This document shows positions 1-35,690 of a DNA stretch of 64,000 nucleotides, one piece after another. The notes below the pieces were generated by a model. That model was not told the DNA's origin and searched no databases. It saw only the letters and a list, made by a program, of their open reading frames with translations. How positions within the stretch are numbered: the first letter of the stretch is position 1; the number at the start of each line of letters is the position of its first letter. The translations under genes and the position numbers were made by a program. Source of the DNA: Steromphala cineraria (lineage: Eukaryota; Mollusca; Gastropoda; Trochida; Trochidae); the NCBI GenBank assembly GCA_916613615.1, contig OU744727.1, positions 720,593 to 784,592 of the forward strand. Reading direction: 5' to 3'.

Positions 1-184
1 ATGTGAATTTTACCATTGCCTTTGGTGCCGTCGGCGCCGATGGTGTGATTGTTTCAAATACTTTGGAATGACGGCAAATGAATGTCCATGAGGCTCACAC
101 TGATTTTCTCTGTAAAATGCTCCTGAGTTGTTCTTACTTGCACATGTCTAAATCTGTTTCAATCTATTACAGATGATATAGAAG

Positions 185-2639: not shown

Positions 2640-3535
2640 TTTTGTAGAGGAGTAAATTGTCTTCATTTCAATGTATCATTTGTCTATGCGCGCACAATGA
2701 TAAAGAAGCGGCAGCGATGCACGGAATAAATGACATCGTCCACCCGCGCTACTTGCGCGCCGGCGTTCGCTAATTGAACTTGTATTTAACTCCCGCACCT
2801 TGTGGCACTCATATCTCACGAACCAATAGAGATATTTTTATAATTTTTATATCAACTTGTAGAGAAAAGAATTGTCTTTTTTTCCATGTATCATATGTCT
2901 ATGCGCGCAATGAAGAAGCGGTGCGCGCTCTACTTGCGCTCCGGCGTTCGCTAATTGAACTTGTATTTAACTCCCGCACCTTGCGGCACTCATATCTCAC
3001 GAACCATTAGAGATATTTTTATAATTTTTATATCAACTTGTAGAGAAAAGAATTGTCTTTTTTTCCATGTATCATATGTCTATGCGCGGACAGGAATAAA
3101 GAAGCGGCAAGCGAAAGATAAGTGATCGTTCACACGCGCTACTTGCGCTCCGGCGTTCGCTAATTGAACTTGTATTTAACTCCCGCACCTTGCGGCACTC
3201 ATATCTCACGAACCATTAGAGATATTTTTATAATTTTTATATCAACTTGTAGATAAAAGAATTGTCTTTTTTTCCATGTATCATATGTCTATGCGCGCAC
3301 AAAAATAAAGAAGCGGCAAGCGAAAGATAAGTGATCGTTCACACGCGCTACTTGCGCTCCGGCGTTCGCTAATTGAACTTGTATTTAACTCCCGCACCTT
3401 GCGGCACTCATATCTCACGAACCATTAGAGATATTTTTATAATTTTTATATCAACTTGTAGATAAAAGAATTGTCTTTTTTTCCATGTATCATATGTCTA
3501 TGCACGCACAAAAATAAAGAAGCGGCAAGCGGAAT
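2640..3535. repeat. Subterminal tandem array of piggyBac copy 1 (about 5 units)
   Basis: Five units of roughly 180-215 bp are each recognisable by GCGCGCATAGACATATGATAC (minus-strand reading) and by the segment covering TCATATCTCACGAACC. They lie between the transposase 3' end and the terminal repeat. The matching array in copy 2 has about eleven units, so array length changes between otherwise near-identical copies. Confidence 0.85.
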
Positions 3536-6660: not shown

Positions 6661-7129
6661 AAAAAATTTGAAATTATCTCAAACGTTCCGTGAGATATGA
6701 ATGCCGCAAGGTGGGTAACCCCAATCATTTTTGAGAAAAGGTTTGATATTTCCGACAGATAGCTTGCAGTTTCTTTAGTTTTTCGTGCGCATTTACAAAT
6801 GACACATTGGACTGAAGCTCGTTCTTCGCTATTTACAATCATGTAAATGATTTGATCCCCACCCCCTTCCAAAATTGTATATAGTGCCAAAGAAGGGGTG
6901 GGGGTTCATGATGCGGCTTCAGTTGAACTTCCACGGACAGCTCACATTGACTTTCTCTGTCTCTGTTACGAAATAAAAAAAGAAAAATTTATTTTTATAA
7001 ATGCTTGTACAATATAATCAACAAATATATAAGTATAACAATAATCACCTTCAAAGGTGCGAATAACAGCTTTATAGAACCTAACAAGGTCTAGAGTTCA
7101 GTCCACACTTCTACTTCTTTTTTCTTTCT

Positions 7130-9109: not shown

Positions 9110-11194
9110 CTTCTATATCATCTGTAATAGATTGAAACAGATTTAGACATGTGCAAGTAAGAACAACTCAGGAGCATTTTACAGAGAAAATCAGTGTGAG
9201 CCTCATGGACATTCATTTGCCGTCATTCCAAAGTATTTGAAACAATCACACCATCGGCGCCGACGGCACCAAAGGCAATGGTAAAATTCACATATTTGGA
9301 CGTTTCATGACTGTCCCGGCTAACCCCGGTTCTTTTATTCATACGACTCCCCAAAAGTCGAAAACCTGGGCTTTCTTCTGACTTCCTAGGCGACGAGTTG
9401 GCGAGTCGCGAACGAAACAACCATCTACGTCAGGGAAGCTCTGATTGTCAGTTGTGGATTACAAAAGTTTTGCAACTTTTGATAGGTTCCACGGACCTAA
9501 CCGCCGCAGCGTCGCGGCGAAACCCAAACAAAATTGCCGATGTCAAAAAAAGGACATCAACACATTTTGCGGGGCTTCTTGCATCTTTATTTCTCTTTGC
9601 GCATATACATATGATATACCAAAATGATGGCACTTTTATTCTCTTTCCAACGATATATCGTGTGTTAGAGCGCGCCGCTTGGTTAGTGAAATATCAAGCG
9701 CGAAAGTACATACTTTTGCGGCCTTTATAGTATAATTATTTGCATGGGCGGACATACAAATGATATGCCAAAATGAAGGCAATTTCATCCTCTTTCCAAC
9801 GATATCTCATGTGTTAGAGCGCGCCGCTTGGTTAGTGAAATATCAAGCGCGAAAGCAATCTCTCGGACTTTGTGTTCTGAAATCCGAGGCACTGGGCAAC
9901 GTTGCCCATGAAATTGGTTGTTCTCGAATGGAAGGACCTCGCCCGACATATAAGGAAAATGTTTCAGACCTCGGAATAACACCGAAAATAGTTTTTGAAT
10001 TTCACTAAACATGATATTGATTTTGAAAGTTTGGGTGCTAAGGGTCAATTTTTCCCATGGTTTGCGGCGAGGCCCGCACTAGAAATAGTGAAAATTCTCG
10101 AATGAATGTTCCGAGCACCCTCGATTTTTCATGGGAAAAATTCCCACAAACGTTCCGTCCCTCTCGGGAGAAAATTCTCGGTCTCCGAAAAAGTTGAATA
10201 AGTCAAAAACCGATTGCTTCGCGTCAACAACATTTATACCGCAGATAGAGCCCCGACTTTTCCACCTCTCCAATAAGTCACTTTTCACAAATAAATTTTT
10301 TTTATTTTGTTATTGACGAAAACGGTTTTATGTAAATATTTCAATAATTAGTAACTTCTCCTTTCTTCCAGGGACGTGAAAGGGTAGACATTGACACTCA
10401 AAGTTTGGACATGTGCAGTTTCAGCAAATGGCATCACAAACAAAAATGTTCACGCAGTTCTAAAAAACCCGAGTGCAGCCGAAATTTAGTGGGAAATTTT
10501 TCTCACAAAAACGACTACAGTCGGAAAAAGCGTCTCGATCATGACAATATTTCTGTTTCCGAGTTATAACTTTTTAGGCAGAACTGGAAGCAAACTTTCG
10601 CTTCGACAGTTTTTAGCTTTGGGGGCTAAGGGTAAATTTGTACCATGTCTCGTGGCGAGGCCCGCACTAAAAATATTGAAAATCCTCGAAAGAAAACTCC
10701 GAGTACGCTCGATTTTTCATGGGAAAAAAGTCCATACCTCACGGCGAAGCTCGGAAGTGGTCAAAATCTCCGGCCTTCGTCATAACCCGAGAGTGAAAGT
10801 GGCCCAAAAAAAGCCCATACCGCCGGGTGGTCTCGGAAAAGTAGAACAAAAGCACGATCGTGCTCAAAACCCGATAGTGTGAATGTGGTCATGGGACAAC
10901 TTTCCCATTACATCATGGCGAGACCCGGGACAAAATTTCCGATGGCCGGAAGTGGTCAGAACACTCGGACGTCCCTTTCGTCATGGGAAAACGTTCCCAT
11001 TACCTCATGCCGAGACCCGGAAAAAAATTTCGATGCCCGGAAGTGGTTCGGAACCTCTGACGTCATCGCAACCCGATCATGTAAGTTTGGTAATGGGACA
11101 AGTTTCCCATTACGTCATGACTAAAAACCGGAAAAAATGTTTTATGTCAAAAAGACCTACACACATTTTGCGGGGCTTCTTGCATCTTTATTTC
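9110..11194. other. Non-coding interior of piggyBac copy 2 with spaced GGG...CCC dyads
   Basis: No gene is seen. The block has two isolated units of the right-array type near 9599 and 9746. A roughly 120-bp unit then occurs twice (about 10026-10145 and 10608-10735, both with GCGAGGCCCGCACTA). Three units of about 100 bp follow near 10890, 10981 and 11092, each with a dyad of the form ATGGGA(N)nTCCCAT. A perfect 16-bp palindrome, TGGGCAACGTTGCCCA, lies at 9893-9908. These could be protein-binding or promoter sites of the element, but that is inference. Confidence 0.6.
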
Positions 11195-18120: not shown

Positions 18121-18165
18121 AAGGGTTTGTCATTCCTTAACTACTATGGATAGGTAGACAAGTAG

Positions 18166-19385
18166 AACTTGATCCAAAGTTATTCCCTTCATTGAAAGTA
18201 AGTATAAATATATACAATTATTGATAAATATGTTTTCAATGTGAATAATTTACTATTCATTTATATTGCTTGTTGATGTAAATGTTTCGTGGAGGGTTCA
18301 ATTTCCTGCGTTAATTACCATGCTATTAAAATTTAGATGATAATGTAAATTTATACTCATCAATATTAATCACTCACTATTTTTTATCCATAGTGTGTAA
18401 ATTAATGTTATAAAGAAGATAACATGGAAGTCTATGGAAAAAATATTTCACCACAATAATATTATCCAAGTTGTGTTCAGCAATAACTCACTCACTCACT
18501 TGTGTAGAGAAAATTAACTCTAGACTAGTGCTTACTCTCATAGTTTTTTGTTTTTTTATTTAAGTATCTCTATTTAAATTCTTTCAAGTGTGAAAATGAA
18601 TTACACCAACTGTGAAAAGTATGTGAATGTTAAAAGGTACACTACATCGATAAAAAAAATCTTATGTAAGAGTCCCGATCAAATATATGGTTAATACCAC
18701 TTTAAAGAATGTTATATAGTCTACTTTAACCAATCAGTATAATCTCTACACCGTCCGTTAATTAGGTCTGATTCGATAAAAGCGAGAGTCACTTTTATTG
18801 TGATGGAAGTGGCCCTTTAAATATGGTGTTTAGAGAATTACACTCTAGACATAGCACAACTCTCATAGTTTTACTACCATCCTTATAAAGTATCTAAAAT
18901 CTCACACCTAATAGATTTCTCTCAACTAAGACTCTCACCTCTAACTTTCTTGATTCGTAAAATTGTTTTCTCTTTGTATTTTTTGATAATAACATTTCAT
19001 TTGATTTTAGCACATCATTGGAGATGGAGCCTCTTGTATTGATGTTCGAGGAGCATGGGAGGGTTACATCAACGACTACATTTGTCATGGTGTGTGCTTT
19101 AAATTTAATTAAAATCTCTATAATGAAATTAAATCAATGTTATTGTTTGAATTCAGTGATTTCAAATTCTTTTAAAAGTTTTGATATTGATTTCAGATTC
19201 TACAACTGTCTCGTCCATTACTCTTACCACGACAACAACTAGGAATAGGACTAGAACTAGGACAACATCTTCCATTACTACCTTTAATACCTCCCCTACC
19301 CTCCTCACTACGTCGACAATCCTACCTAGCACCCTTGCTACCCCTTCCTCCCATGCTACACCCGTTTCATCCACTACTATCCTCG
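18166..19385 (+). pseudogene. Copy A of the secreted Thr-rich protein gene: exon 1 remnant and exons 2-3
   Basis: Only the last codons of exon 1 remain (ELDPKLFPSLK, ending at the GTAAGT donor near 18195). The signal-peptide part is deleted relative to copy B, with GATAGG at both breakpoints. Exon 2 (19011-19089, acceptor TTGATTTTAG, donor GTGTGT) encodes HIIGDGASCIDVRGAWEGYI and NDYICH. Exon 3 (19197-19385, acceptor TTGATTTCAG, donor GTATGT) encodes a Ser/Thr-rich, mucin-like stretch (DSTTVSSITLTTTTTRNRTR and onward). Intron phases are 0, 1 and 1, so the splices are frame-compatible. Exons 1-2 together read like a short leucine-rich cap (VTVIHLL, LFPSLKHI, SCIDV), but I do not recognise the family. 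Exon boundaries are predicted only. Confidence 0.6.
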
Positions 19386-20512
19386 GTATGTATGTTTACA
19401 TTCTCAGTGAACAGTGTGCTGAGGTCACAGGTGAATGGGTTAAGTAGACAGTCAACGGAGGTCAGATGAGTGTATAGCAGGCCATATGGTTTAAACATAT
19501 TTTTATTTCATAAAATGAAATATGAATTGGTGAACAAGCCACAAGGCTTATTTGAACACCGCTCCTAAACAGAGAAACCTGGACATTTTATACAATATAA
19601 TTAGAAAAATATAATGTATAAAACCATCTTTATAGTCGAATCAGTTTATGTTAAAGAATAATGTTGCTGGAAATGCCTATGACATGAGGTCACAGGTGAA
19701 TGGGTTAAGTAGACAGTCAACGGAGGTCAGATGAGTGTATAGCAGGCCATATGTAACGCATTTCTTATAGTAGGGTAGATGTAACGTGTAGGCTAGATGT
19801 AACGTTATACTTATAGTTTTCTTGTGGGTTTTGTGTATTTTATTTTGAAAGTAGAAGACTGCCTACTTATTGCTTTGTGTAAAGTAGCTTACTTTATACT
19901 TTTATAGTTTATGTATTCAAGTATCTAAGCAGTATTCAAGCTAAGTTTATTACTTTATATGTGGTGATAAAATAAAACTTTCTCCCAACACATCTGTTTT
20001 TCATTTGAAATTGCTGTGTGTGCCTGGGTATACAATAGATATGTGAGGTCGGCAAGTGCTCACAATGTAATATAACGTGTCGTATTGACTCATGGGGAAT
20101 TCCCATCGTCATTCTGACGCCCTGGCATTTATGTCAACTTTGAGAAAGTTTTTGAATATGTAATATGTTGAAATGTCTTAGACTTTTCTTTACAAAATAA
20201 TTTATCACACATTCTCGGTTCGCGTATCAGCTTATGTAATTGTCTTTGAAACTTTCACTAAACATGTCTCAGGTAAACTTAAACAAAATACTTTAACATT
20301 ATAAATCATGAAAAGTGAAAAGATGAATATAGATGTGATAACAAGCTTTAAGTTTATATTATACTCAACCTCATGGTATAACTATAACACCATTCCCATG
20401 GCACGACGTCACAAAGGTCAAGTGTTATGACATCATAATGATTGTGTCAACGTCACAATGGCCTGGGCGAGTTTAAGATTTGTATAGTTGGGTTTGTTCC
20501 TGTTAGTTTATT
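19386..20512. other. 3' region of copy A with a repeated 66-bp segment
   Basis: A segment beginning AGGTCACAGGTGAATGGGTT occurs at 19419-19485 and again at 19686-19752. Copy B has it once, near 29835. A polyadenylation signal (GATAAAATAAAAC) lies near 19966-19980, shared with copy B at about 30100. The rest is non-coding and aligns with 29890-30445, then with 31048-31091 and 32902-33058 of copy B. Confidence 0.6.
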
Positions 20513-21182
20513 GCCCTTTTTACATGCGCACTTTACTCCTGAGAGTATAATTACTTCTAGGAGTATTTTTGCTCCTAGGAGTAAAAGTATATTTACTTTA
20601 CGTTCCATTGGAATTTAAGGACCCTTAAGTATATCATGATTTGCTTACAGTAGAAATATATTTTTTCATAGAAAACTCAATGTGTGAAATGCGAATCTTG
20701 AGGCAGAGAAGAATTTAACACAATTTTACCATAGATTTTGTTTGGTCAATCAACTTCTAGTGTAAAAGGAGTGAACGCAGCTGGTTTTCGGTTTTAAAAG
20801 AATGACACCAACAAAAAACCCACATTTCCTTCATTAGGAAACATGCTCTCGACAAGTTAAAAAGAATAATCTTGAATGCAAGTTATTATTAATGAAAACA
20901 CAATAGTAGTGTTTAAAAACTATATAAATGCAAGTCATTTACCTCAACCTTATCATTCAACTATGCTAATACTATAGAAAATGACAGGATACTCACAGGA
21001 GTAAAAGTAAATATACTTTTACTTTACCTCTAGGGGTGGAGTATTTAACTCCTAGGAGTAAATATACTCCTGTAAGTAAATCTGTTTTGGGCTGTTTACA
21101 TGGCACGTTTACTCCCTGTAGGTATATTTACTCCTAGGAGTAAATATACTTCTAGGAGTAAATGTGCGCATGTAAAAAGGGC
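20513..21182. mobile_element. 670-bp MITE with CTCCTAGGAG subterminal palindromes
   Basis: Inverted termini are GCCCTTTTTACATGCGCA on the left and TGCGCATGTAAAAAGGGC on the right. TTAT is present on both sides. The element is absent at the matching site in copy B (about 33058), which gives an empty site. Both ends carry clusters of the palindrome CTCCTAGGAG (near 20575, 21055 and 21130). A second, internal copy of the terminus (GGGCTGTTTACATGGCAC) lies at about 21090. It encodes nothing. Confidence 0.85.
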
Positions 21183-21736
21183 TTATGTATAATATAACTG
21201 TTTTCTCTCTCATAAATTTCACAGCGAAAACTATAAGATCTCATCGTTATGAGGACAACTGGTTGTTTGCGATAGAAGAACACTATTTTAATGTCTATAA
21301 CACTAGAAATTCTAGCTGCGAACGCCTTAGATCCTTTCAACTCGGACTTCCCTACACAAAAAGAGTTCGTCTTAAAATGCATATAACAAACGGTTAGATT
21401 ACAATATCGATAAATAGTTGCGTTTGTAAAATTTCCAGGATTCATTGTTATTCAACACCCGCAAATTTGAGCGTTTAAAACCCAAACATTTTGACCAAGT
21501 TTTAATTATAATAATATTATTAACCTTTATATCTAGGACCTGTCCAGGACAAAAATCCTTTATATTTATTGGATAGTGGGTGAGCCTTAGCCTAGGTTGT
21601 CACTAATTGATATCATAAACAATTCAGTCACTGGTGATATACATGGTAAAATAATATTCATCATGCTAAAATAATATTCATCAGCTAAAGGGTTTTAACA
21701 AACAAACAAAAATGTATGAATTCTAGATTTACTCAC
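21183..21736. other. Non-coding stretch of copy A
   Basis: This aligns with 33059-33621. Short open frames on both strands exist, but the A/B differences do not favour either frame, and the plus frame is shifted in copy B near 33244. I see no supported gene. Confidence 0.5.
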
Positions 21737-22187
21737 CTATGCCAAAGTCTGTGTAGCGGGTTCTTCACCAGTATCTTCGTTGTCCTCGCTGCAGCAAAAA
21801 AACTGCAGTTTGTTGTAGGTCCGGTTATTTGTTGATTTTTCTCTGTCCGAGATACATCAAATGAGTCGACGATTCTAAGGCTTCAGTGTAACGATCGTTC
21901 ATTAATATTTCAAAGTCTCTCTCCTCCTCGTTTGAATGGACAGTTTTCAGGATCACCTTCCACAGATTTTCCTGTTTGAGTTTGAATTCGTTGACAGATG
22001 TTATGTGTAGAAAACGATTCTTTGGAAGATCGCTAATTTTGGTTCTCGAATCTTCCTGATGTACACCATCTTCATTAAATTTATCAATAAGCTTCTTTTC
22101 AGACAGCTTCATGACTTTAGGTTTAAAAACCTTTTAATCGCCACCATCAGTAAGGATTTCTGTAGTTTTCCTCTTAAGCGATGCCAT
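21737..22187 (-). pseudogene. Copy A of the 152-residue protein gene, disrupted
   Basis: This is homologous to the intact frame at 33622-34080. It starts MASLKRKTTEILTDGGD, but the next codon is TAA where copy B has AAA. Farther on, one extra T in a T-run (about 21838-21842) shifts the frame after MYLGQRK, and one SED codon group near the end is missing. The visible substitutions against copy B (I/M, H/Y, F/L, N/S, E/K) all change amino acids. This fits loss of constraint after duplication. Confidence 0.8.
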
Positions 22188-22448
22188 GATGCGAACAGAA
22201 GCAGGTGATGATGCAGTAGGTGAGTGATGAGAACAGAAGCAGAACTTGTATGGTATCAGTGTGTGATATAAAAAAAAAGTGTAAGTTGACAAAGTGTTTA
22301 TCACTCTTTTATACCAGACCCGAATCCAACAGGTGTAGGCAAGAACCATATACCTATTCAATTTCAAAATTCAATACATACTCAAGTTAGGTTATGTCTC
22401 CACCCTTATTGGCATAGACTGACCAGTTGTGATATGTTGAGACATGTG

Positions 22449-23965
22449 ACATGAGTACAATACCCTTTCAAATTCCAAATTCAATACCCCATTCAATTCA
22501 GGTACCCGCCCTTGTTGAGGCAGGTGGCATGAGTACAATACCCTTTCAAATTCCAAATTCAATACTCCATTCAATTAAGGTCCCCACCCTTGTTGTGACA
22601 GATGACACTAGTACAATACCCTTTCAAAGTCAAATTCAATACCCTATTCAATTCAGGTACCCGCCCTTGTTGAAGCAGGTGACACGAGTACAATACCCTT
22701 CCAAATTCAATACCCTATTCAATTCAGGTACCCGCCCTTGTTGAGGCAGGTGACACGAGTACAATACCCTTCCAAATTCAATACCCTATTCAATTCAGGT
22801 ACCCGCCCTTGTTGAGACAGGTGATATGAGTACAATACCCTTTCAAATTCCAAATTCAATACCCTATTCAATTCAGGTACCCGACCTTGTTGAGGCAGGT
22901 GACATGAGTACTATACCCTTTTCAATTTCAAATTTAATACTCCATTCAATTAAGGTCCCCACCCTTGTTGTGACAGGTGACACTAGTACAATACCCTTTC
23001 AAATTCCAAATTCGATACCCTATTCAATTCAGGTACCCGCCCTTGTTGAGACAGGTGATATGAGTACAATACCCTTTTCAATTTCAAATGTAATACTCCA
23101 TTCAATTAAGGTCCCCACCCTTGTTGTGACAGGTGACACTAGTACAATACCCTTTCAAATTCCAAATTCGATACCCTATTCAATTCAGGTACCCGCCCTT
23201 GTTGAGACAGGTGATATGAGTACAATACCCTTTTCAATTTCAAATTCAATACCCCATTCAATTAAGGTCCCCACCCTTGTTGTGACAGGTGACACTAGTA
23301 CAATACTCTTTCAAAGTCAAATTCAATACCCTATTCAGTTCAGGTTCCCCACCCTTGTTGAGGAAGATGACATGAGTACTATAACCTTTTCAATTTCAAA
23401 TTTAATACTCCATTCAATTAAGGTCCCCACCCTTGTTGTGACAGGTGACACTAGTACAATACCCTTTCAAATTCCAAATTCGATACCCTATTCAATTCAG
23501 GTACCCGCCCTTGTTGAGACAGGTGATATGAGTACAATACCCTTTTCAATTTCAAATTCAATACCCCATTCAATTAAGGTCCCCACCCTTGTTGTGACAG
23601 GTGACACTAGTACAATACTCTTTCAAAGTCAAATTCAATACCCTATTCAATTCAGGTTCCCCACCCTTGTTGAGGAAGATGACACGAGTACAATACCCTT
23701 TCAAAGTCAAATTCAATACCCTATTCAATTCAGGTACCCGCCCTTGTTGAGGCAGGTGACACGAGTACAATACCCTTCCAAATTCAATACCCTTTTCAAT
23801 TCAGGTACCCCCCCTTGTTGAGACAGGTGATATGAGTACAATACCCTTTTCAATTTCAAATTTAATACTCCATTCAATTAAGGTCCCCACCCTTGTTGAG
23901 GCAGGTGACATGAGTACAATACCCCATTCAATTCCAAATTCAATACCCCATTCAATTCATCATTT
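22449..23965. repeat. 78-bp minisatellite, copy A (about 19 units)
   Basis: Units read GAGTACAATACCCTTTCAAA, CAAATTCAATACCC and TTCAATTCAGGTACCCGCCC, then TTGTTGAGGCAGGTGACA. From about 22950 two variants alternate, giving a 156-bp higher-order period. One has CAGGTACCCGCCCTTGTTGAG and the other AAGGTCCCCACCCTTGTTGTG. The period of 78 is a multiple of three, so long frames stay open on both strands (for example 22826-23821), but nothing suggests translation. Confidence 0.92.
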
Positions 23966-24018
23966 CATGTTCAACCCATCGACCGGATCAGCCAGACCTT
24001 TAAGTTGTGCCCTCAGTA

Positions 24019-24345
24019 ATGGACGTGTGTGGAAGATACAACGATATAGAAACTGACTGCGCCAAAGCGGACACCTGTACTGAGATTTATGGACACAAGT
24101 TTACTGACAGACGGAAGTCGTTTGACACCTGGCCTCTTCAAATAAAACAGTCTCCAAAATCATTGCCCAAGGCAGGGTTCCTATACACTGGAAAATCTGA
24201 CAAGGCTTACTGTTTCAAGTCCAAGCTTCGTGTTCATCGTTGGATTCCAGAAGACGACCCCATGACAGAACACTTTAGACTGTCTCCTCACTGTAGCTAC
24301 ATTCACATGGTAGGTGAAGCCAAAATCACCAACAAGCAAGGCTAG
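24019..24345 (+). CDS. BIR-domain (IAP-like) small protein lacking one zinc ligand
   Basis: The 108-codon frame from the ATG at 24019 contains one baculoviral IAP repeat at residues 31-97. It has RRKSFDTWP, LPKAGFLYTGKSDKAYCF, WIPEDDPMTEH and SPHCSYI. BIR domains bind one zinc through C-x2-C-x16-H-x6-C and block caspases or bind IAP antagonists. Here C65, H85 and C92 are at the right spacing, but the second Cys (position 68) is Ser, so zinc binding is doubtful. There is no RING or second BIR, unlike XIAP-type proteins. IAP genes are abundant in molluscs, and BIR proteins also occur in several DNA viruses. The next frame starts 75 bp downstream on the same strand. It could be an exon, a host-gene fragment or a gene of a virus-like element. 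Confidence 0.75.
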   Translation: MDVCGRYNDIETDCAKADTCTEIYGHKFTDRRKSFDTWPLQIKQSPKSLPKAGFLYTGKSDKAYCFKSKLRVHRWIPEDDPMTEHFRLSPHCSYIHMVGEAKITNKQG

Positions 24346-24420
24346 TCATAAAACACCATTGACTCAGCTGCACTTGAACATTTAAAAAAAAGGACTGACA
24401 AACATTAAACATCTCCAACC

Positions 24421-24912
24421 ATGAGCTGTGGCTTGTTAGAAAAACATGCAACTTTCCTGCTGATGTTGGAACAAGCCAACGTTGGACAAAGAAAAGCTTT
24501 GTTAAAGCATGCATCAGGCGAACAGTTTATGGCAGTGATTACTCTCATATTTAACATACTGAGGGGAAACATACCCGTGGGGGATGAGGATAAAACTCGA
24601 CTGTCCCGGAAAAAAAAATGCATTCGTACCTTAGCCGCCAAGAAGATAAGCAAACGTGTCAAACGTGAGTTGTTGATCAACCATCAGTCTGTGCTACCCG
24701 TTTGCATCAGATCCTATCGTGCCTACCTTACATCTGTACCGCCTACCTTTGACGACAACGATGTCTCGTCCGATGGTACTCTTGACCAGAGACACCTACC
24801 AGAGACTGATGTCTGGACAACAGGACGAACAGAAGAAGAATCATCAACAGACAGCAACGAGTCCGCCAGGTCAACAAGAGACAGCAGCGACGACGACGAC
24901 GACAGAGACTGA
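24421..24912 (+). CDS. Small basic protein with acidic tail, virus-like-element type
   Basis: The 163 residues begin MSCGLLEKHATFLLML. Residues 20-95 are basic and helical-looking: QRKALLKHASGEQFMAVI, ILRGNIP, then RLSRKKKCIRTLAAKKIS and KRVKRELL. The tail (105-163) is rich in D, S and T and ends in a run of Asp. The core pattern resembles small uncharacterised proteins that I recall from Maverick/Polinton- and adintovirus-type elements of animals. That is memory, not a search result. The last 152 bp overlap the next gene in another frame. No capsid, polymerase or integrase gene of such an element is visible in the window, so this would be a fragment. Confidence 0.55.
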   Translation: MSCGLLEKHATFLLMLEQANVGQRKALLKHASGEQFMAVITLIFNILRGNIPVGDEDKTRLSRKKKCIRTLAAKKISKRVKRELLINHQSVLPVCIRSYRAYLTSVPPTFDDNDVSSDGTLDQRHLPETDVWTTGRTEEESSTDSNESARSTRDSSDDDDDRD

Positions 24913-25456
24913 ATCAACAAATAAAAACATGGACAACACATCGACTTCAAGAGGGGATGCACAAGATGAAAGCAATCCACAACCTGAAGATAATGTTTTG
25001 CTTCAAGTTCCCGATCTTCTTCTAAAAAAAGTTACTTCTAAAAAAGACATGGGAAAATTAATGGCTTTGTGGTTATTTCTCAAAGACAAAATCAAGTCCT
25101 CGGGGAGTGACTTGAAGGTGACCAATAATTTAGAACTTGTGGTGGGAGATGGAAACTTGGTTGAAGGTTCAAACCTCGTGAAACTGATTCGGTCAGTGAT
25201 CCTACCACCTTCTTCCACTTCTAAGAGACCAACTGGATACAAAGACTTTTGTCAAGTGCTGCATGGCTTACATGTGCCCAAAGATCTTCTGAGAAAAAGT
25301 CATGATAGGAAGACTTCCAGAACAAACTTGCTGCTGCGAAAAGAATGTATATCAAACGTAAATCGAGATTTGGTGTACCCGGAGGACAGTTCAGAAACTT
25401 GGAATCATTTTGAATGTAAAGAAAAGGAGATAGAATTAAATGAGATCACTGAATAA
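24761..25456 (+). CDS. Virus-like-element type protein, overlapping the preceding ORF
   Basis: The frame is 231 residues from the ATG at 24761 (an alternative ATG at 24773 gives MVLLTRDTYQRL). The N-terminal motif LTRDTYQRLM is followed by a low-complexity Q/T-rich linker and then by MGKLMALWLFLKDKIKSSGS, NLELVVGDG, GSNLVKLIR, RPTGYKDFCQVLHGL and HVPKDLLRK. The layout (an MLLTRDEY-like start, a linker, then G-SNI/L-DLI, G-F-L, N/HVP-LL) matches a recurrent module I recall in Polinton/adintovirus-type loci, without verification. The frame overlaps the upstream ORF by 152 bp, a compact arrangement unusual for animal genes but usual for viruses. AATAAA signals follow at about 25478. Confidence 0.55.
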   Translation: MSRPMVLLTRDTYQRLMSGQQDEQKKNHQQTATSPPGQQETAATTTTTETESTNKNMDNTSTSRGDAQDESNPQPEDNVLLQVPDLLLKKVTSKKDMGKLMALWLFLKDKIKSSGSDLKVTNNLELVVGDGNLVEGSNLVKLIRSVILPPSSTSKRPTGYKDFCQVLHGLHVPKDLLRKSHDRKTSRTNLLLRKECISNVNRDLVYPEDSSETWNHFECKEKEIELNEITE

Positions 25457-28400
25457 ACATGTTTATATTAATGATAATAAATATTATTGAAAATATGTTG
25501 ATGTTTTGTCATTTGTCTTTATAGAAATGAAAATTTAAAAAAAAAAAAAATAAATAAATAAAATAAAAAATAAATTGTAACTGTTGCAATTCAATTATTA
25601 AAAAAAGCGTAGCATATTCATTCAGCACAACAACGCTAAAAGAATTTTTGAAATCAGTTCATTATGAAGAAAGTTATTGACATTTTACCACCACAGGAAG
25701 TGAGTCACAGGAAATGACATCATCAAACCTTCTTTAATACATAGCTGAACGAATAACAGTTTAGAAAGGGCTCGAAGGGAAGAACACGATGGAAACGTTT
25801 CAAATGATATCGACTATCATCGTAACGAGTTAAGAAGGATGACGTCATCATGATGTCATTAATGTATCCATAGTGAATTATACATTTGGTAAGAATGGAG
25901 AAAGTTGCAAATGTTTCGACAACAACAACAAAATTTAATTAAATCTATACATTATAAAGATAGTAATGATCAACTGTGATCCAATGGCACATCCTATCAC
26001 CCCTCCTATTTCCCTACAAATTGGAAGAGTCCAATATTTTCAATGTTGGATATCTGGACTTCTAATGAATCGATTTTAAAGTTTCATATATCGTTGGATT
26101 CGTTAAAGTGAGAACTTTCCAATGTTCAAATTGGTGTCATTCCTTTCATAACCTACGGAAAATTAAATCTTAATTATAAGATTATTAGCCAAGAAGATTT
26201 CTACACAAAATATGACAATTGCAATATGATAATAATAATATAAATAATAATATAGAAACATATAAGCTTGCGCTTGTTTGCCAATCCAATTTCATGTGTT
26301 AATGAAATAAAATATGTTTAAATCATAGAAATCGGTAGAAATCAAATCCACGAAATTATTTATGTTACACTGAAATAGCATGCAAGTCTATGGAAATCAT
26401 GTCAAGTGACGAATACTTATGTCCACTGACTATTTTTACAACACATCTGCATGTACTCGGCGACCGTATATCCTTCAAATCAATCAAATGTATGATAAGA
26501 TTAATTTGTTCAGATTCTGTTTATTCATTCACCTGAGACCATACACTCCAAATAGTTCATTTAATTAATGTTTGAGAGGTTATTCTCCGTTCTGTGTTAC
26601 ACGACACATCAACACGATACACCCCCCTTTTTTATTTTTATTTCACGCCCAAAAGAAAGGAGTATATATTTAGGGTGGAATCGTGAGGTGTAGCAGTGAA
26701 AGAGAGTAATACATCTTAGTCTTGAACTTGAAGTAAAGAGTGGATAGAACAAATCAATAGTTTTATAGAAAAAACGAGGGAGTTTCTCAACGAATTGAAA
26801 TATTATTGCTTCTTTATTTCTCTTGCTTTTATCACCTGATAGGGTTAAGATAGGTGTGGGGATGATATTTTTTTTTTAAAAACATGATAGGGTGGAGACC
26901 TAAAATAAATATATGAAAAGAAAAGGAGGTGTGTTTTTTTTTAATGTTTTATGTATAAGTACATATGTTTTATCATGTGAAGTTACTACGCCTTGTTTTT
27001 TAACTCACATCCTCCCCTGGGAAAATTACACATTCTTACTACAATGAATCCCTACCCACTCTACATATGTATAAATTTCAAGACACATGTGCTGCGTATA
27101 AGACAAGATTCAAACCACCAGAAGATTTTTAACATCAGTTATATTTATTTCATATAGATGGGTTTTATGATTATCTTTGATCAGAGTAAAACTAATTTTC
27201 AACTCGGGATTGGAGAAAATCAATCCAAGTTCGGACATTCTGCTAAGTACCAAATATTATCAAGAGTTATCACTTCAAAAGGCTTGTTGTCCATTTTAAA
27301 GTATTAATAAGACATATTTCCAAACTTATCAATCATATTTTATCGAAATTCAATCAAATCTTTGTCAAAGATACACTCGTGAAAGCACGATGTTTTACAT
27401 TGCTTTGAATTTCAATCGTAATTCCGTGACGACAAATACCATTATTTATATAATTCTTTGCTTATGGTTATATTTCTGATCGTTATTCGCCGACTTTTAT
27501 ATACACAATATTTCAATAAACTGCATGTTAATTATGAAAAAATAAAATATAGAAAACGTGTAAGAAAATCTGGTATATTTACACATTTAATATTGTATCG
27601 ACAAAATGTTTTCATGAGAGTATTACGACCACGTTTTATGTCTGTAGATCTTTTTAAAACCGACTTGCTGATTGGTTGACCTACATAATTTAGCCAAGGA
27701 AAAGGCTTGTAACAAATATCTCATATCCAGTAAACACTTCATGCACCAAAGGTTGTTGACTGTCGTTCGTTAACAATTTGTCGAGAATGATATGTAATAT
27801 GATTAAAACAAACAAGAAACACCGTAAGTGAACACTTATAATGTCTTTTATAGTTTTTTAAAATAATATACGTCTTAAAATTAATGTGTCACTTGATGAT
27901 TCATGAGCTTTTAGTTTCAATGCAACTGGCATCATATCGACTTACAGTCAGCAATATATAGAGCTGCGAGAAGGGGGGTCGGTCTATACATGAGATACTA
28001 GGTTTTGACTGGAATTTGGGGGGTTGAGAAAGGGGATCGGCTTATATGCGGGGTCGGCTTATACCCGGTCATATACGGTACTCAACTATCGTCAGATCTA
28101 AAAGACATTCTTTGCTACTTCCTAAAGGATTTGGATATTTTCCGATTATATAATTCGACTAACCCAACCTAGTCTTACAATGCAGAGAGACGGGACTCTA
28201 TCCTCTCATTTAGCAGAGAAGAAAAGACTCTTACAATTCAAAGTGTAAATTGTCGAGTTGTCTATTTACTCGATTTGAATGAGATCAAATAGGTTATTGT
28301 GCTCTTAATAAAAGCAGAAGGGGAGGTTCTCAAAAGTCGCAACCTGAGCGAATTTATGACAAATTATGAACATTTAAACTAAGGGAAATTGATATCACTC

Positions 28401-29431: not shown

Positions 29432-29674
29432 ATGATAATGAGAAGGATATTTATGTGGGTCCTGCTCACAATTGTAGTATTGATGATAAATGAAGGAGTG
29501 GGTACCCCCATAGTTCGAAATTGTTATGTGAGACAAGTATTAAGATGTCGTCGGCTTGGTGGGGGTATATATGAACATATCCATGGAGATACATACCACA
29601 AAGTTACAGTCATTCATTTACTAGGATCGACCGATAGGATAGAACTTGATCCAAAGTTATTCCCTTCATTGAAA
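29432..29674 (+). pseudogene. Exon 1 of the secreted-protein gene, copy B (partial gene)
   Basis: The exon is 81 codons from the ATG at 29432 to a GTAAGT donor at 29675, phase 0. Residues 1-24 form a signal peptide (basic MIMRR, then a hydrophobic WVLLTIVVLMI core and a small-residue region near GVGT). The mature part has two Cys (NCYVRQVLRC) and a leucine-rich-like strand (VTVIHLLGSTDRIELD, LFPSLK). The following exons seen in copy A are deleted here. After the donor the sequence jumps to DNA matching copy A's 18430 region and then its 3' region. Unless an unseen exon is used, the product would end a few codons into the intron (at about 29701). Confidence 0.6.
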
Positions 29675-31091
29675 GTAAGTATAAATATATACAATTATTG
29701 ATAAAGTCTATGGAAAAAAATATTTCACCACAAATGGGAATAACTCACTCACTCACTTGTGTAGAGAAAATTAACTCTAGACTAGTGCTTACTCATAAAA
29801 TGAAATATGGATTGGTGAACAAGCCACAACGGAGGTCACAGGTGAATGGGTTAAGTATACAGTCAACGGAGGTCAGATGAGTGTATAGCAGGCCATATGT
29901 AACGCATTTCTTATAGTAGGGTAGATGTAACGTGTAACGTTATACTTATAGTTTTCTTGTGGGTTTTGTGTATTTTATTTTGAAAGTAGAAGACTGCCTA
30001 CTTATTGCTTTGTGTAAAGTAGCTTACTTTATACTTTTATAGTTTATGTATTCAAGTATCTAAGCAGTATCCAAGCCAAGTTTATTACTTTATATGTGGT
30101 GATAAAATAAAAATTTCTTCCAACACATCTGTTTTTCATTTGAAATTGCTGTGTGTGCCTTGGTATACAATAGATATGTGAGGTCGGCAAGTGCTCACGA
30201 TGTAATATAACGTATCGTATTGACTCATGGGGAATTCCCATCGTCATTCTGACGCCCTGGCATTTATGTCAACTTTGAGAAAGTTTTTGAATATGTAATA
30301 TGTTGAAATGTCTTAGACTTTTCTTTACAAAATAATTTATCACACATTCTCGGTTCGCGTATCAGCTTATGTAATTGTCTTTGAAACTTTCACTAAACAT
30401 GTCTCAGGTAAACTTAAACAAAATACTTTAACATTATAAATAATATTCATTTTAAAGTTATACCTGAGAGTTGTTTTGTGAATAAGTATCAGAAGTTTAA
30501 AGATAGATTACAGGAATTCATTATAAAATGATATTCCAACTATAATGAGAACAAATACATATTTCAATGTTCCTCTTTGTTAATTATAACATTGAATTCA
30601 ATGTAGCTTTAGCACAGCGAGTTCCTCTTTGACAACAAACACATAGCGCGAGTTCCTCTTTGTCACCTGAGACGCGAACCTGAAATGGTATAAGAGATAT
30701 TAAACCCAAAGTTCTATAATTTACATGGGATATCTTAAAATCATTACTAAACATTCTACAATTTACAAACTGAATGAGATAAAAAGACTTTCATCTTTAA
30801 AATCTAACAGTGTTAACCTGGTAATGGAAATTATCATTATAAAAAGTCATTCCTATCCCCATCCCTAATGACCAGGGAGAATTCCCCATCTCATGAGTCA
30901 AAGTCTAAAAATAACTATGATGCACGAGGTCGATCAGTCCAGTGAGTGGTGAAGAAGTAACACAAGTGCATAATTGGACTTGTATGTTCATGAAAAGATT
31001 AGCACAACAAGTATGTTCATGAAAAGATTAGCACAACAAGTATGTTCATGAAAAGTGAAAAGATGAATATAGATGTGATAACAAGCTTTAA
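29675..31091. other. Non-coding part of copy B
   Basis: 29890-30445 matches copy A's 3' region. 30446-31045 is found only in copy B. It includes GAGTTCCTCTTTG three times (30617-30662) and a tandem repeat of about 30 bp containing AGTATGTTCATGAAAAG (30978-31050, 2.5 units). No gene is seen. Confidence 0.55.
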
Positions 31092-32897
31092 AGAGGCGCT
31101 GTATAACCTTTTTTAAATATATTTTTCAGAAGATATTGGTCAAATAACTATATAACATAAATATTAGGCCAAAACAGCAACGATACACAGTTTCTCAATG
31201 ACGCTACAGCTAAGTAAACACTGCGTAACAAGGCGTCTGCTTGTCGGGGTCCAGCGACAAACCAAAACAAGGCTGAGAGGCCACGGGAAGGGGATACCGG
31301 AAGTGACGTGGCAGTAGGTGAAGCGTTCGTCTGCTTATATGGAAAATGATAGGCGAAATCCGTAGTTCTGCGTTTTCCAAGCGATTAACAGTATGTCATA
31401 TCATTGTGATGCTGTCAACTGTCCTAGAATATCTCCTGATTAAGTTTCCGTAGACAAATTCCCATTACATTGATCGTTTCACACCAAATTGACCCGCTGT
31501 GTTAGGTCAAACAGAGCAATGTGTCAATCTACATCGAACTCACGTGTTCCGATCACTACACCGATTTTCTGTTTCGAGCTCGCATTTTCACTGAATGAAC
31601 AGTTTGGCATGCAGAGAAAAAAGAGATTAGTAAAATATAAAACATAGCACAAAGTTTTTGGCTGATTTATGGTAATAATCCGAATTTACAATGCTCACAT
31701 TTAGATTTGAACGTTGTGTAAAAAGGTTGAATAAACAATGACATTGGTCTGCAGGTGTTATTTACTTTCTTTAGATCAGATACTCACTTATTATACAATT
31801 ACTTTACTGTCTATCGTATTTCCTGTCTGTTTCCTAAATTAAGGCTATCAAATGATGACCATAGGAGGTAGGTTACATAATGCACAATCATCAACACCTG
31901 GCTATTTTATGACATCAGCTTATTAGGTAACATCAAATAGCAATTGTATTCCTTAACATCCCTTTTTTCTCCGATTGGTAAATTATAACCTGTTGAAATT
32001 AGGAATACTTTTTTTGCTCTATCTGATAATTATTTTGAATAAGGTTCATTTAATAAATCTTCACTCTGTTGGGCCATGTATCGGGTTATTGTTGTGAAAA
32101 ATATCTCTTCTATGTACAAGAGTGTATGAAATGCCCTATTAAAATAATGTTTTAAACAAGACAACAGTCATCATCCAATACATGCCTTTCATTGAGAATT
32201 GTAACTTATCCATCACTAAATGAAATAACTAAGAAAAACGTATATTTTTTTATCCTGTTACAAAATGAAGTCAAAGGCATTTAAAAAAAATTGGTTTAAA
32301 TGTATGAAAAATAGTATTGTATAATAATATCCTTTCTGCTGTGCTACTAAAGTAATATTCAATAACAACAAACAACTGTGCACGAAGATATAACGGTTCA
32401 CACGTGAGCAATTGTTTATGACGAAAATACTTCCGGGTTCTCACGTGCAGTCTTATGACAACATTGCGCAAAGCGAGACCATCTACATGCTTTAGCATTA
32501 TGCGCACAACTTCGTTTTTAATCAGGGTCTTACATTTTCATCAATACAAATTGCCAGTTGAATAAATAAACTACCTATTTATTGAAGGTTTGAGATGTTT
32601 GGATGTTGTTTAGGGTGTTTAATCGGCGGTAAAACATCGAGCTGTACTGTTAGCTTGTGTTGTTGTACATAACGAGGGCACACAACGGGGTATCACATCA
32701 CCTACTAACACGTCACGAGTCAGTCACGCTTCAGTGTGATTTATTCTGTTCGCCGGCCTAATTAGGCGGTGTTATTTATACAGTCGTAATTAAGCCGTTT
32801 CTAGGTCGATTTCAGAAATTTAAAGTTGAGTCCATATGAAATTGTTATCACTATTTCATGAATCCCGAAAGTTGCCATATAGCATTTCAGTCCATCT
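31092..32897. mobile_element. 1.8-kb TTAA-flanked non-coding element
   Basis: The insertion is bounded by TTAA at 31088-31091 and 32898-32901. Copy A has the uninterrupted site with one TTAA (20348-20351). The termini are only weakly inverted (AGAGGCGCTGTATAA against AGATGGACTGAAATG). Inside, GTGACGTGGCAGTAGGTGA at about 31304 is opposed by CACCTACTAACACGTCAC at about 32698. There is no long ORF. About 190 bp at its right end recur, inverted, near 60 kb. Confidence 0.75.
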
Positions 32898-32901
32898 TTA
32901 A

Positions 32902-33621
32902 GTTAATACTATACTCAACCTCATGGTATAACTATAACACCATTCCCATGGCACGACGTCATAAAGGTCAAGGGTTATGACATCATAATGATTGTGTCAA
33001 CGTCACAATGGTCTGGGCGAGTTTAAGATTTGTATAGTTGGGTTTGTTCCTGTTAGTTTATGTATTATATAACTGTTTTCTCTCTCATAAATTTCACAGC
33101 GAAAACTATAAGATCTCATCGTTATGAGGGCAACTGGTTGTTTGCGATAGAAGAACACTATTTTAATGTCTATATCACTAGAAATTCTAGCTGCGAACGC
33201 CTTAGATCCTTTCAACTCGGACTTCCCTACGCAAAAAGAGTTCGCTCTTAAAATGCTTATAACAAACGGTTAGGTTACAATATCGATAAATAGTTGCGTT
33301 TGTGAAATTTCCAGGATTCATTTTTATTCAACACCCGCAAATTTAAGCGTTTAAAACCAAAACATTTTGACCAAGTTTAAATTGTAATAATAATTAACCC
33401 TTAACCTTTATATCTAGGACCTGTCCAGGACAAAAATCCTTTATATTATTGGATACCATAGTGGATGAGCCATAGCCTAGGTTGTCACTAATTGATATCA
33501 TAAACAATTCAGTCACTGGTGATATACATGGTAAAATAATATTCATCATGCTAAAATAATATTCATCAGCTAAAGGGTTTTAACAAACAACCAAAAATGT
33601 ATGAATTCTAGATTTACTCAC
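32902..33621. other. Non-coding stretch of copy B
   Basis: This aligns with copy A 20349-20512 and 21183-21736, the MITE being absent. I see no supported gene. Confidence 0.5.
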
Positions 33622-34080
33622 CTATGCCAAAGTCTGTGTAGCGGGTTCTTCACCAGTATCTTCGTTGTCCTCGCTGTCCTCGCTGCAGCAAAAAAACTGC
33701 AGTTTGTTGTAGGTCCGGTTATTAGTTGATTTTCTCTGTCCGAGATACATCAAATGAGTCGACGACTTTAAGGCTTCAGTGTAACGATCGTTCATTAATA
33801 TTTCAAAGTCTCTCTCCTCCTCGTTTGAATGGACAGTTTTCAGGATCACCTTCCACAGACTTTCCTGTTTGAGTTTGAATTCGTTGACAGATGTTATGTG
33901 TAGAAGACGATTCTTTGGAAGATCGCTAATTTTGGTTCTCGAATCTTCCTGATATACACCATCTTCATTAAATTTATCCATAAGCTTCTTTTCAGACAGC
34001 TTCATGACTTTAGGTTTAAAAACCTTTTTATCGCCACCATCAGTAAGGATTTCTGTAGTTTTCCTCTTAAGCGATGCCAT
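33622..34080 (-). CDS. Hypothetical 152-residue charged protein, intact copy
   Basis: The frame starts MASLKRKTTEILTDGGDKKV. It is basic at the N terminus and rich in K, E and D throughout (KLSEKKLMDKFNEDG, RTKISDLPKNRLLHI, KLKQESLWKVILKTVHSNEE). It has an acidic tail SEDSEDNEDTGEEPAT and two adjacent Cys (FFCCSED). There is no signal peptide or membrane segment. The middle (LLHITSVNEFKLKQESLWKV, FEILMNDRYTEAL) could be helical. I do not recognise the family. Copy A of the duplication has a stop codon and a frameshift. Its start lies about 260 bp from the 78-bp satellite, which therefore sits in its upstream region. Confidence 0.55.
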   Translation of the reverse strand: MASLKRKTTEILTDGGDKKVFKPKVMKLSEKKLMDKFNEDGVYQEDSRTKISDLPKNRLLHITSVNEFKLKQESLWKVILKTVHSNEEERDFEILMNDRYTEALKSSTHLMYLGQRKSTNNRTYNKLQFFCCSEDSEDNEDTGEEPATQTLA

Positions 34081-34339
34081 GATGCGAACAGAAGCAGGTG
34101 ATGATGCAGTAGGTGAGTGATGAGAACAGAAGCAGAACTTGTATGGTATCAGTGTGTGATATCAAAAAAAAAGTGTAAGTTGACAGAGTGTTAATCACTC
34201 TTTTATACCAGACCCGAATCCAACAGGTGTAGGCAAGAACCATATACCTATTCAATTTCAAAATTCAATACATACTCAAGTTAGGTTATGTCTCCACCCT
34301 TATTGGCATAGACTGACCAGGTGTGATATGTTGAGACAT

Positions 34340-35200
34340 GTGACATGAGTACAATACCCTTTCAAATTCCAAATTCAATACCCCATTCAATTCAGGTACC
34401 CGCCCTTGTTGAGGCAGGTGACACGAGAACAATACCCTCTCAAATTCCAAATTCAATACCCTATTCAATTCAGGTACCCGCCCTTGTTGAGGCAGGTGAC
34501 ACGAGTACAACACCCTTTCAAATTCCAAATTCAATACCCTATTCATTTAAGGTCCCCACCCTTGTTGTGACAGGTGACACTAGTACAATACCCTTTCAAA
34601 GTCAAATTCAATACCCCATTCAATTCAGGTACCCGCCCTTGTTGAGGCAGGTGACATGAGTACAATACCCTTTCAAATTCCAAATTCAATACCCCATTCA
34701 ATTCAGGTACCCGCCCTTGTTGAGGCAGGTGACACGAGTACAATACCCTTTCAAATTCCAAATTCAATACCCTATTCAATTCAGGTACCCGCCCTTGTTG
34801 AGGCAGGTGACACGAGTACAATACCCTTTCAAATTCCAAATTCAATACCCTATTCAATTAAGGTCCCCACCCTTGTTGTGACAGATGACACTAGTACAAT
34901 ACCCTTTTCAATTTCAAATTCAATACTCCATTCAATTAAGGTCCCCACCCTTGTTGTGACAGGTGACACTAGTACAATACCCTTTCAAAGTCAAATTTAA
35001 TACCCTATTCAATTCAGGTTCCCCACCCTTGTTGAGGCAGGTGACACGAGTACAATACCCCATTCAATTCCAAATTCAATACCCCATTCAATTCAAGTTG
35101 ACGCCCTTGTTGAGACAGGTGACACGAGTACAATACCCTTTCAATTCAAATTTCAATACCCCATTCAATTTAGTATCGAGGCAGGTGAGATGCAGGTGTC
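34340..35200. repeat. 78-bp minisatellite, copy B (about 11 units)
   Basis: The units are the same as at 22449-23965, including the CAGGTACCCGCCC and AAGGTCCCCACCC variants. The array decays from about 35160 onward into scattered CAATACCYATTCAAT pieces up to about 35350. It is shorter than copy A by some eight units. Confidence 0.9.
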
Positions 35201-35439
35201 ACGAAGACAATACCTATTTCAAATTCAATGGGTATTGTTCCTATATCAATAAAGGAGGATACTGGTATTCAATTCAATACCCATTCAATTTAGGTATCCA
35301 CCCTTATTGATATAATAACAATACCCATTCATTCAGAGAACAATACCTATTCATCTCTAAAAGGGTCAAGAGGGTCAAAAGGGTCAATGATGACGTCATT
35401 AAACCTTATTCAGGCTAATCACTTATCACTTTTCATCTA

Positions 35440-35690
35440 CTCACAATCACTGTATTGAGAAGATTGTTTTCGGCTTATGGCATACCACATCAACTGGTCT
35501 CGGACAATGGTCCACAGTTTACCTCATATGAGTTCACAGAGTTCCTGAAAAAAAATGGTGTTCAACACATTCTATTATCTCCTTACCATCCTAGCTCGAA
35601 TGGAGAGGCTGAGAGATTCGCCCGTAATTCAAAACTGCAATGAAGTCTATGAAGACTACTCCCGGATACCTGGATCAACACACCTGTAAG
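35440..35690 (+). pseudogene. Ty3/gypsy integrase core fragment
   Basis: The frame reads RLFSAYGIPHQLVSDNGPQF, SYEFTEFLKKNGVQHI and SPYHPSSNGEAERF. It holds the second Asp (SDNGPQF) and the Glu (NGEAER) of the DDE integrase triad. A frameshift after NGEAERF ends the frame at 35643. Recognisable sequence goes on to about 35690, where a LINE tail begins. The end of the same gypsy pol appears at 42976-43059, past the LINEs. Confidence 0.85.

What the first reader, a model, noticed from the sequence alone, without database searches (positions are those of the whole stretch)
24019..25577. Compact three-ORF cluster of virus-like-element type next to a satellite
A BIR protein, a basic protein and a third protein overlapping it by 152 bp lie on one strand within 1.4 kb, followed by an A-rich tract. 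The overlap, compactness and recalled similarity of the last two proteins to Maverick/Polinton/adintovirus-type genes suggest an endogenous fragment of a DNA-virus-like element carrying an anti-apoptotic gene. The A-rich end would alternatively fit a retrocopied transcript.
Basis: partly seen in the sequence, partly recalled or inferred. Interest (0 to 1): 0.75.

Follow-up and report, generated by a model that had tools for sequence, protein, structure and literature searches.

The report
Broken Maverick virus carrying IAP-type gene
The three genes are a broken piece of a Maverick (a virus-like mobile element), and relatives of its cell-death-blocker-type gene ride in several Maverick lineages across this probable abalone genome, a possible alternative to the RNA-copying explanation given for similar genes in other molluscs.

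Summary
The trio is real: BIR ORF 24019-24345, 163-aa ORF 24421-24912, third ORF 24761-25456, overlap 152 bp. In the same genome six other loci carry it in one order behind integrase, penton-like, capsid, protease and ATPase ORFs (polymerase B confirmed in one). One 22.3-kb element has 0.78-kb terminal inverted repeats; 3 of 3 elements checked have 6-bp target duplications. The "satellite" is the tandem-repeat part of such terminal repeats. All 9 other close copies align past the A-rich tract, so a retrocopy is rejected. The window copy is decayed: truncated, one BIR zinc cysteine lost, third ORF frameshifted. The one significant viral structure match of the 163-aa model is an adintovirus protein. 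Wider result: 69 of 147 BIR matches in this genome lie within 10 kb of a Maverick gene (0.5 by random shift), with BIR in three positions in three lineages. Many dispersed single-BIR ORFs, a class read as retroposed in clam and oyster papers, are Maverick cargo here; 78 of 147 matches have no such neighbour. Anti-apoptotic function is inferred.

The parts
18129..22434 (+). remnant of a first, truncated right arm of the element (unit 1), colinear in pieces with 29609-34328
   Evidence: blastn 79-99% identity in pieces
21740..22190 (-). decayed copy of the ~151-aa right-arm ORF of the elements (frame broken)
   Evidence: tblastn with the L024 ORF: two pieces, 58-67% identity
22435..23959 (+). 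78-bp tandem repeat ('satellite') = tandem-repeat part of a Maverick terminal inverted repeat
   Evidence: TRF; matches the L031 left terminal repeat in inverted orientation
23956..23959 (.). junction of array and element interior; shared word TTCA, read by eye
   Evidence: alignments of six complete-type copies start at 23956
23956..27216 (+). 3.26-kb block of Maverick interior, 85-91% identical to other elements
   Evidence: blastn to L017/L018 and L023/L024
24019..24345 (+). BIR-domain ORF, 108 aa, second Cys of CFKC lost (CFKS)
   Evidence: Pfam PF00653 E 2.7e-18; alignment
24421..24912 (+). 163-aa basic helical protein with acidic tail; adintovirus-type protein
24761..25456 (+). third ORF, overlaps the previous by 152 bp; C-terminal frameshift relative to 216-217-aa copies
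25537..25574 (+). A-rich tract, internal to the element, not a poly(A) end
   Evidence: 7 of 9 other close copies align through it; 9 of 9 align on past it
30355..30772 (+). piece of diverged element right arm
   Evidence: 75.5% to L024 7220-7616
33625..34083 (-). ~152-aa right-arm ORF (no Pfam match), also in other elements
   Evidence: 61% to the L024 ORF; no family
34329..35170 (+). second 78-bp tandem-repeat array, in the right terminal repeat
35434..35441 (+). right terminus ...CATCTACT of the element; no matching left terminus found in the window
   Evidence: motif scan; ends of other elements

Best explanation
The cluster is the 3' gene block (BIR, 163-aa protein, third protein) of a Maverick/Polinton (adintovirus-type) element that integrated into a gastropod genome, probably an abalone's. 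It was later cut down by deletion and rearrangement and exists, with its surroundings, at three places within 0.45 Mb of contig C7. In complete-type elements the block follows the capsid, protease and ATPase genes; the 163-aa and third proteins are most likely virion or core proteins (inferred), and the BIR protein most likely restrains host cell death while the element replicates (inferred). The window copy itself is a fossil. Shown: gene order in complete-type copies, terminal repeats, target duplications, decay. Inferred: virion role, anti-apoptotic role, spread on C7 by segmental duplication, origin of the junction by short-homology joining.
For: Own-genome search: 9 close uninterrupted copies of the 163-aa ORF (89-100%, window included) and one interrupted close copy among 100 matches. 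Six loci with the same gene order upstream. Pfam on ten ORFs of L017 and L019: DNA_pol_B_2 1.3e-18, rve 1.4e-9 with Chromo 2.2e-5, Peptidase_C5 3.2e-6, Pox_A32 1.2e-5. The MCP model matches double-jelly-roll capsid proteins: PBCV-1 2.8e-13, mavirus 8.9e-13, Sputnik 1.6e-12. Terminal repeats of 781 bp at 97.6% in the C4 element; 6-bp duplications GGCTTT, TTTAAG, GAGGGT in 3 of 3 elements checked. 163-aa model: best viral match an adintovirus protein, E 2.9e-5, probability 1.00. dN/dS 0.18-0.23 over 85 N-terminal codons of the 163-aa ORF between the window and six complete-type copies, on few changes.
Against: No polymerase, integrase or capsid remnant is in the window: of 15 element proteins only the trio and the right-arm ORF matched, plus a 17-residue ATPase-end match at 23952-24002 that I read as intergenic. 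The trio block is about 91% identical to the C4:47.98M element while the right arm and terminal repeat are only 67-81%, so the window locus may be a patchwork of two subfamilies. One of the ten close copies (L003) lacks the BIR at that place. No relative was found in viral contigs by four scans.
Confidence: 0.95

Rival explanations
1. A retrocopied multicistronic transcript inserted beside an unrelated satellite.
For: A-rich tract at 25537-25574 and intronless ORFs.
Against: Homology to 9 of 9 other close copies continues to at least 26121, past the tract; 7 of 9 align through the tract itself; related elements move as DNA with terminal repeats and 6-bp target duplications.
Confidence: 0.02
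2. Host genes: a host IAP and two host proteins that happen to be neighbours, or a domesticated trio kept for a host function.
For: The 163-aa ORF is intact and shows constraint; a host-like gene with three BIRs exists (L057).
Against: The window BIR has lost a conserved Cys and the third ORF is frameshifted; the trio sits in elements elsewhere; constraint is explained by selection on active elements.
Confidence: 0.03
3. The dispersed single-BIR ORFs outside the window's family are ordinary retroposed IAP copies, and Mavericks merely inserted near them.
For: They look intronless and are dispersed, as described for clam and oyster IAPs (PMC7831173 and PMC8917759, passages); 78 of 147 BIR matches have no Maverick neighbour in my lists.
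Against: BIR and integrase lie on the same strand in 36 of 36 pairs within 6 kb, 29 of them within 1.5 kb; 7 of 7 single-BIR loci fetched with 5-6 kb show element genes beside the BIR; 69 of 147 matches within 10 kb against 0.5 by shift.
Confidence: 0.05

Closest known systems
Maverick/Polinton elements
   Same: type-B polymerase, rve integrase with chromodomain, double-jelly-roll MCP, adenain-type protease, A32-type ATPase, long terminal inverted repeats, 6-bp target duplications
   Different: carries a BIR gene between the ATPase and the 163-aa gene; terminal repeats contain a tandem array; the window holds only a fragment
Adintoviruses (Terrapene box turtle adintovirus)
   Same: the 163-aa model matches its protein labelled 'GasderminX'; integrase with chromodomain
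   Different: N-terminal OTU-like domain of PolB and reciprocal hexon match not tested; a BIR gene in adintoviruses was not compared
Molluscan intronless single-BIR IAP genes (Song 2021 PMC7831173; Witkop 2022 PMC8917759; passages seen)
   Same: single BIR, no intron, dispersed over chromosomes
   Different: those papers read them as retroposed; here many like genes lie inside Mavericks; those species were not tested
Viral IAPs such as baculovirus IAPs (recalled, no call)
   Same: virus-borne BIR protein
   Different: one BIR and no other Pfam domain above cut-off found here

Membership tests
Maverick/Polinton | viral-type DNA polymerase B | tested here: met
   DNA_pol_B_2 1.3e-18 in L017, the one copy tested
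Maverick/Polinton | rve integrase | tested here: met
   rve 1.4e-9 in L017; lineage B rve 1.3e-15
Maverick/Polinton | adenain-type protease and FtsK/A32-type ATPase | tested here: met
   Peptidase_C5 3.2e-6, Pox_A32 1.2e-5; a whole-genome search with the Peptidase_C5 family found only one match and not these proteases
Maverick/Polinton | double-jelly-roll major capsid protein | tested here: met
   model pLDDT 79, pTM 0.83; PDB capsid hits from E 2.8e-13
Maverick/Polinton | long terminal inverted repeats and 6-bp target duplication | tested here: met
   relatives: 3 of 3 checked; the window copy keeps only a right terminus
Maverick/Polinton | hallmark genes present in the window copy itself | tested here: not met
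   only the trio and a right-arm ORF matched: the window holds a fragment, not a complete member
Adintovirus | PolB with N-terminal OTU-like domain (definition in PMC11071296, passage) | not tested
   the ORF ahead of PolB in L031 shows C2H2 fingers; no OTU test made
Adintovirus | hexon reciprocally recognizable by BLASTp (same passage) | not tested
   no reference hexon was compared by sequence; the BFVD structure search lists an 'Adintovirus sp.' capsid entry at rank 8
Adintovirus | integrase with C-terminal chromodomain (same passage) | tested here: met
   Chromo 2.2e-5, 24.7 bits against a cut-off of 25.1, in L017; 29.9 bits, above the cut-off, in lineage B
IAP (BIR) proteins | BIR zinc-binding domain | tested here: met
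   BIR 1e-23 in L007; the window copy matches but has lost one Cys
IAP (BIR) proteins | inhibition of caspases or cell death | not testable with these tools
   needs biochemistry
Retrocopy | sequence ends at the poly(A) tract | tested here: not met
   homology continues past it in 9 of 9 other close copies

The most novel reading that the evidence does not exclude
Single-BIR IAP genes of molluscs are in large part Maverick genes: the elements took up a BIR gene, hold it at different positions in several lineages, and by multiplying created the dispersed intronless IAP copies now explained by retroposition, possibly feeding new IAPs to the host.
Probability: 0.5. Interest if true: 0.75.

Novelty: new variant of a known kind. 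Interest (0 to 1): 0.6.

Why it matters
Hard clam and oysters have expanded IAP gene families, and the intronless single-BIR class there has been explained by retroposition (Song 2021 PMC7831173, Witkop 2022 PMC8917759; passages). In this genome 69 of 147 BIR matches lie within 10 kb of a Maverick gene, which offers a different, testable source: virus-like elements that carry an IAP-type gene. It also suggests that blocking host cell death matters to these Mavericks, in keeping with a viral way of life (inference). Song 2021 already reports DNA transposons enriched around clam IAP genes (passage), which fits. My searches for Polinton, Maverick or adintovirus together with apoptosis, IAP or BIR terms gave no paper that makes the link as far as the listings show, and passages of PMC8905726, PMC9679248, PMC11071296 and PMC11071308 do not. 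The main adintovirus paper (Starrett 2021) is not held and was not seen, so it may mention this.

Tried and rejected
Retrocopy: rejected (see rivals). Improbable overlap as evidence of a virus: dropped, since 12069 of 20000 synonymous shuffles keep the frame open. Relatives in viral contigs: four scans with the 163-aa protein, its alignment, the MCP alignment and the lineage-B BIR gave none. The Pfam Peptidase_C5 family across the genome gave one match, missing the proteases seen, so it was not used for counting. A BIR tree of 25 rows did not resolve whether the element BIRs are one clade apart from host BIRs, and one row (L044_1) looked mis-cut; it is not used. Four of the 16 short BIR loci (L046, L047, L049, L051) gave no domain by my pattern and were left out of that tree. 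Own-genome searches with the third protein, with the lineage-A MCP and with P0049 did not complete. Pfam hits for the third protein (best DUF4628, E 0.0057) are below the cut-off and not used.
Full report
OBSERVATION. The window holds a BIR ORF (24019-24345), a 163-aa ORF (24421-24912) and a third ORF (24761-25456, 231 aa), the last two overlapping by 152 bp, followed by an A-rich tract. Pfam finds a BIR domain in the first (E 2.7e-18) and nothing above cut-off in the other two. The open overlap is not improbable by itself (open in 12069 of 20000 synonymous shuffles), but the same overlap is kept in related copies, including L012 at about 50% protein identity.

SAME TRIO IN MAVERICK ELEMENTS. 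The genome in which the window lies is held (1.27 Gb, 281 contigs; window = C7:720593-784592). A search with the 163-aa protein gave 100 matches; nine are at 89-100% identity without stops (window included), and one further close copy is interrupted. I fetched 20 kb around each of the nine close copies other than the window's. Six of these (C3:36.74M, C4:9.44M, C4:13.75M, C4:47.98M, C37:19.39M, C39:35.49M) show, upstream of the trio and in one order, integrase, 142 aa, 125 aa, about 431 aa, protease and ATPase ORFs; some of these ORFs are broken in some copies. Of the other three, two are the C7 copies described below and one (L003, C4:14.24M) lacks the BIR at that place. Pfam on ten ORFs (eight from L017, two from L019): DNA_pol_B_2, rve with chromodomain, adenovirus endoprotease, poxvirus A32; the 142-, 125- and 431-aa proteins had no family above cut-off. 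I call the 142-aa protein penton-like from recall. The 431-aa protein, modelled with 24 relatives, matches double-jelly-roll capsid proteins of PBCV-1, mavirus and Sputnik. Its relatives in databases are often named 'F54H12.2-like' and the nearest come from Haliotis at about 80% identity, so the host is probably an abalone (inference). One Haliotis asinina gene model, P0012, joins this capsid protein to a BIR domain, which suggests the same linkage in another species.

ELEMENT ENDS AND THE SATELLITE. The C4 element (C4:47962467-47984809, 22.3 kb) has terminal inverted repeats of 781 bp at 97.6% identity that begin AGTAGATG, flanked on both sides by the 6-bp duplication GGCTTT. Two more elements (C37, C39) have TTTAAG and GAGGGT: 3 of 3 checked; the ends of the other three complete-type loci were not fetched. 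The inverted repeats contain the tandem repeat that the finding calls a satellite; both arrays of the window match them, in the orientation of a right end. The window keeps one right terminus at 35434-35441; no left terminus was found.

WHAT HAPPENED AT THE WINDOW LOCUS. The block 23956-27216 is 85-91% identical to the C4:47.98M element; the right arm (30355-35418) only 67-81% in pieces. At 23956 the array joins the element interior, with a shared TTCA by eye. All six complete-type copies align from exactly that point; their upstream sequence, shown in usable orientation for four of the six, is unrelated to the array and lies behind the ATPase ORF. Short-homology joining is my inference. Unit 1 (18.1-23.96 kb) is a partial tandem copy of the right arm. 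Two further C7 copies (about 1.07 and 1.19 Mb) share the arrangement of array and trio: from within the trio onward the 1.19-Mb copy is 99.3% identical over 9.4 kb, and the 1.07-Mb copy 95.3%, 90.0% and 98.1% in three pieces, so segmental duplication is the likely cause. Decay: CFKS for CFKC in the window BIR (also in the 1.19-Mb copy, not in the 1.07-Mb copy), and a frameshift near the end of the third ORF (tblastn pieces in two frames). That this Cys is a zinc ligand is recalled from the BIR consensus.

RETROCOPY REJECTED. All 9 other close copies align on past the A-rich tract to at least 26121; 7 of 9 align through the tract itself, while the short query stops just before it in two (L008, L009).

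PROTEIN CLUES. The 163-aa model has eight helices in its first 105 residues and a low-confidence acidic tail (mean pLDDT 75, six sequences). Its only BFVD match with E <= 0.001 is a Terrapene box turtle adintovirus protein labelled 'GasderminX' (E 2.9e-5, TM 0.81 by target length); the label says nothing tested. dN/dS between the window and the six complete-type copies is 0.18-0.23 for 85 N-terminal codons of the 163-aa ORF and 0.54-0.61 for the BIR ORF; the first rests on 10-11 changes a pair, the second on 28-31.

WIDER RESULT: BIR AS MAVERICK CARGO. A BIR search of the genome gave 147 matches, 150 of 194 candidates being scored. Eighteen of 147 lie within 15 kb of a 163-aa-type match (0.35 expected), 14 of them within 650 bp. 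I fetched 6 kb around five single-BIR ORFs near the top of the next tier (42-47% identity; ranks 15, 16, 19, 28 and 29, not a random draw): 5 of 5 lie in a second Maverick lineage in which BIR stands just before the integrase (PC4-like - BIR - integrase - 82 aa - penton-like - 124 aa). Two more single-BIR loci followed: L055 is a third lineage (capsid protein 24% identical to lineage A - protease - BIR) and L056 a decayed relative of the second. The one multi-BIR control, L057 (three BIRs), had no match to the element proteins other than BIR in 5 kb. So 7 of 7 single-BIR loci that I fetched with 5-6 kb outside the window's family have Maverick genes; short BIR pieces fetched without context say nothing on this. 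With a lineage-B integrase query (110 of 1380 candidates scored), 36 of 147 BIR matches lie within 6 kb of an integrase match, 36 of 36 on the same strand, 0.15 expected; 29 within 1.5 kb. Adding lineage-C capsid matches (96 matches, 93 of 166 candidates scored), 69 of 147 BIR matches have a Maverick gene (163-aa type, integrase or capsid) within 10 kb, against a mean of 0.5 and a maximum of 3 in 500 random shifts (shifts taken modulo 60 Mb, an approximation). By rank: 14 of 14 (1-14), 30 of 54 (15-68), 20 of 37 (69-105), 5 of 42 (106-147). L056 is not among the 69. A gene with several BIRs gives several matches, so these are matches, not genes; the candidate limits make the counts lower bounds. 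Against a sweeping claim: 78 of 147 have no such neighbour in my lists. They include host-like genes with long or several-BIR frames and 24 matches of ranks 15-68, of which I saw context for one only (L056).

LITERATURE. Song 2021 reads 51 of 159 hard clam IAPs, intronless and dispersed, as indicating retroposition, and reports DNA transposons enriched around IAPs (passages). Witkop 2022 reads intronless single-BIR oyster IAPs likewise (passages). For this genome the data favour transport by Mavericks. I did not test those species. What I searched for a printed link, and what I could not see, is under Why it matters.

MECHANISM. Most likely (about 0.6): in complete-type elements the BIR protein delays host cell death while the element replicates. 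Position behind the ATPase or protease, or before the integrase, leaves the timing open. The window copy probably does nothing of this now, since its BIR lacks a conserved Cys.

Noticed in passing
L034-L038, L056: Second Maverick lineage with a PC4-like protein and a BIR gene directly before the integrase; copies up to 99% identical.
   Followed up: partly
L055 2461-4864: Third Maverick lineage with capsid protein - protease - BIR; capsid copies at 91-100% identity on C3, C4, C7, C32, C41, C42 and C43.
   Followed up: partly
window 33625-34083 (-) and L024 7978-8433 (-): A ~151-aa ORF without Pfam match next to the terminal repeat of the elements, on the strand opposite to the trio.
   Followed up: partly
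window 35450-35660: Sequence just outside the element's right terminus reads like a retrotransposon integrase fragment (by eye, not searched), so the element may have inserted into one.
   Followed up: no
window 1-3525 and 5775-9293: A 3.5-kb inverted duplication at 97% identity beside 181-209-bp tandem arrays.
   Followed up: no
window 20532-21184: Repeated CTCCTAGGAGTA palindromic words, possibly a small mobile element inserted in unit 1.
   Followed up: no
L031 3935-5653: The ORF ahead of the polymerase B region carries C2H2 zinc fingers.
   Followed up: no
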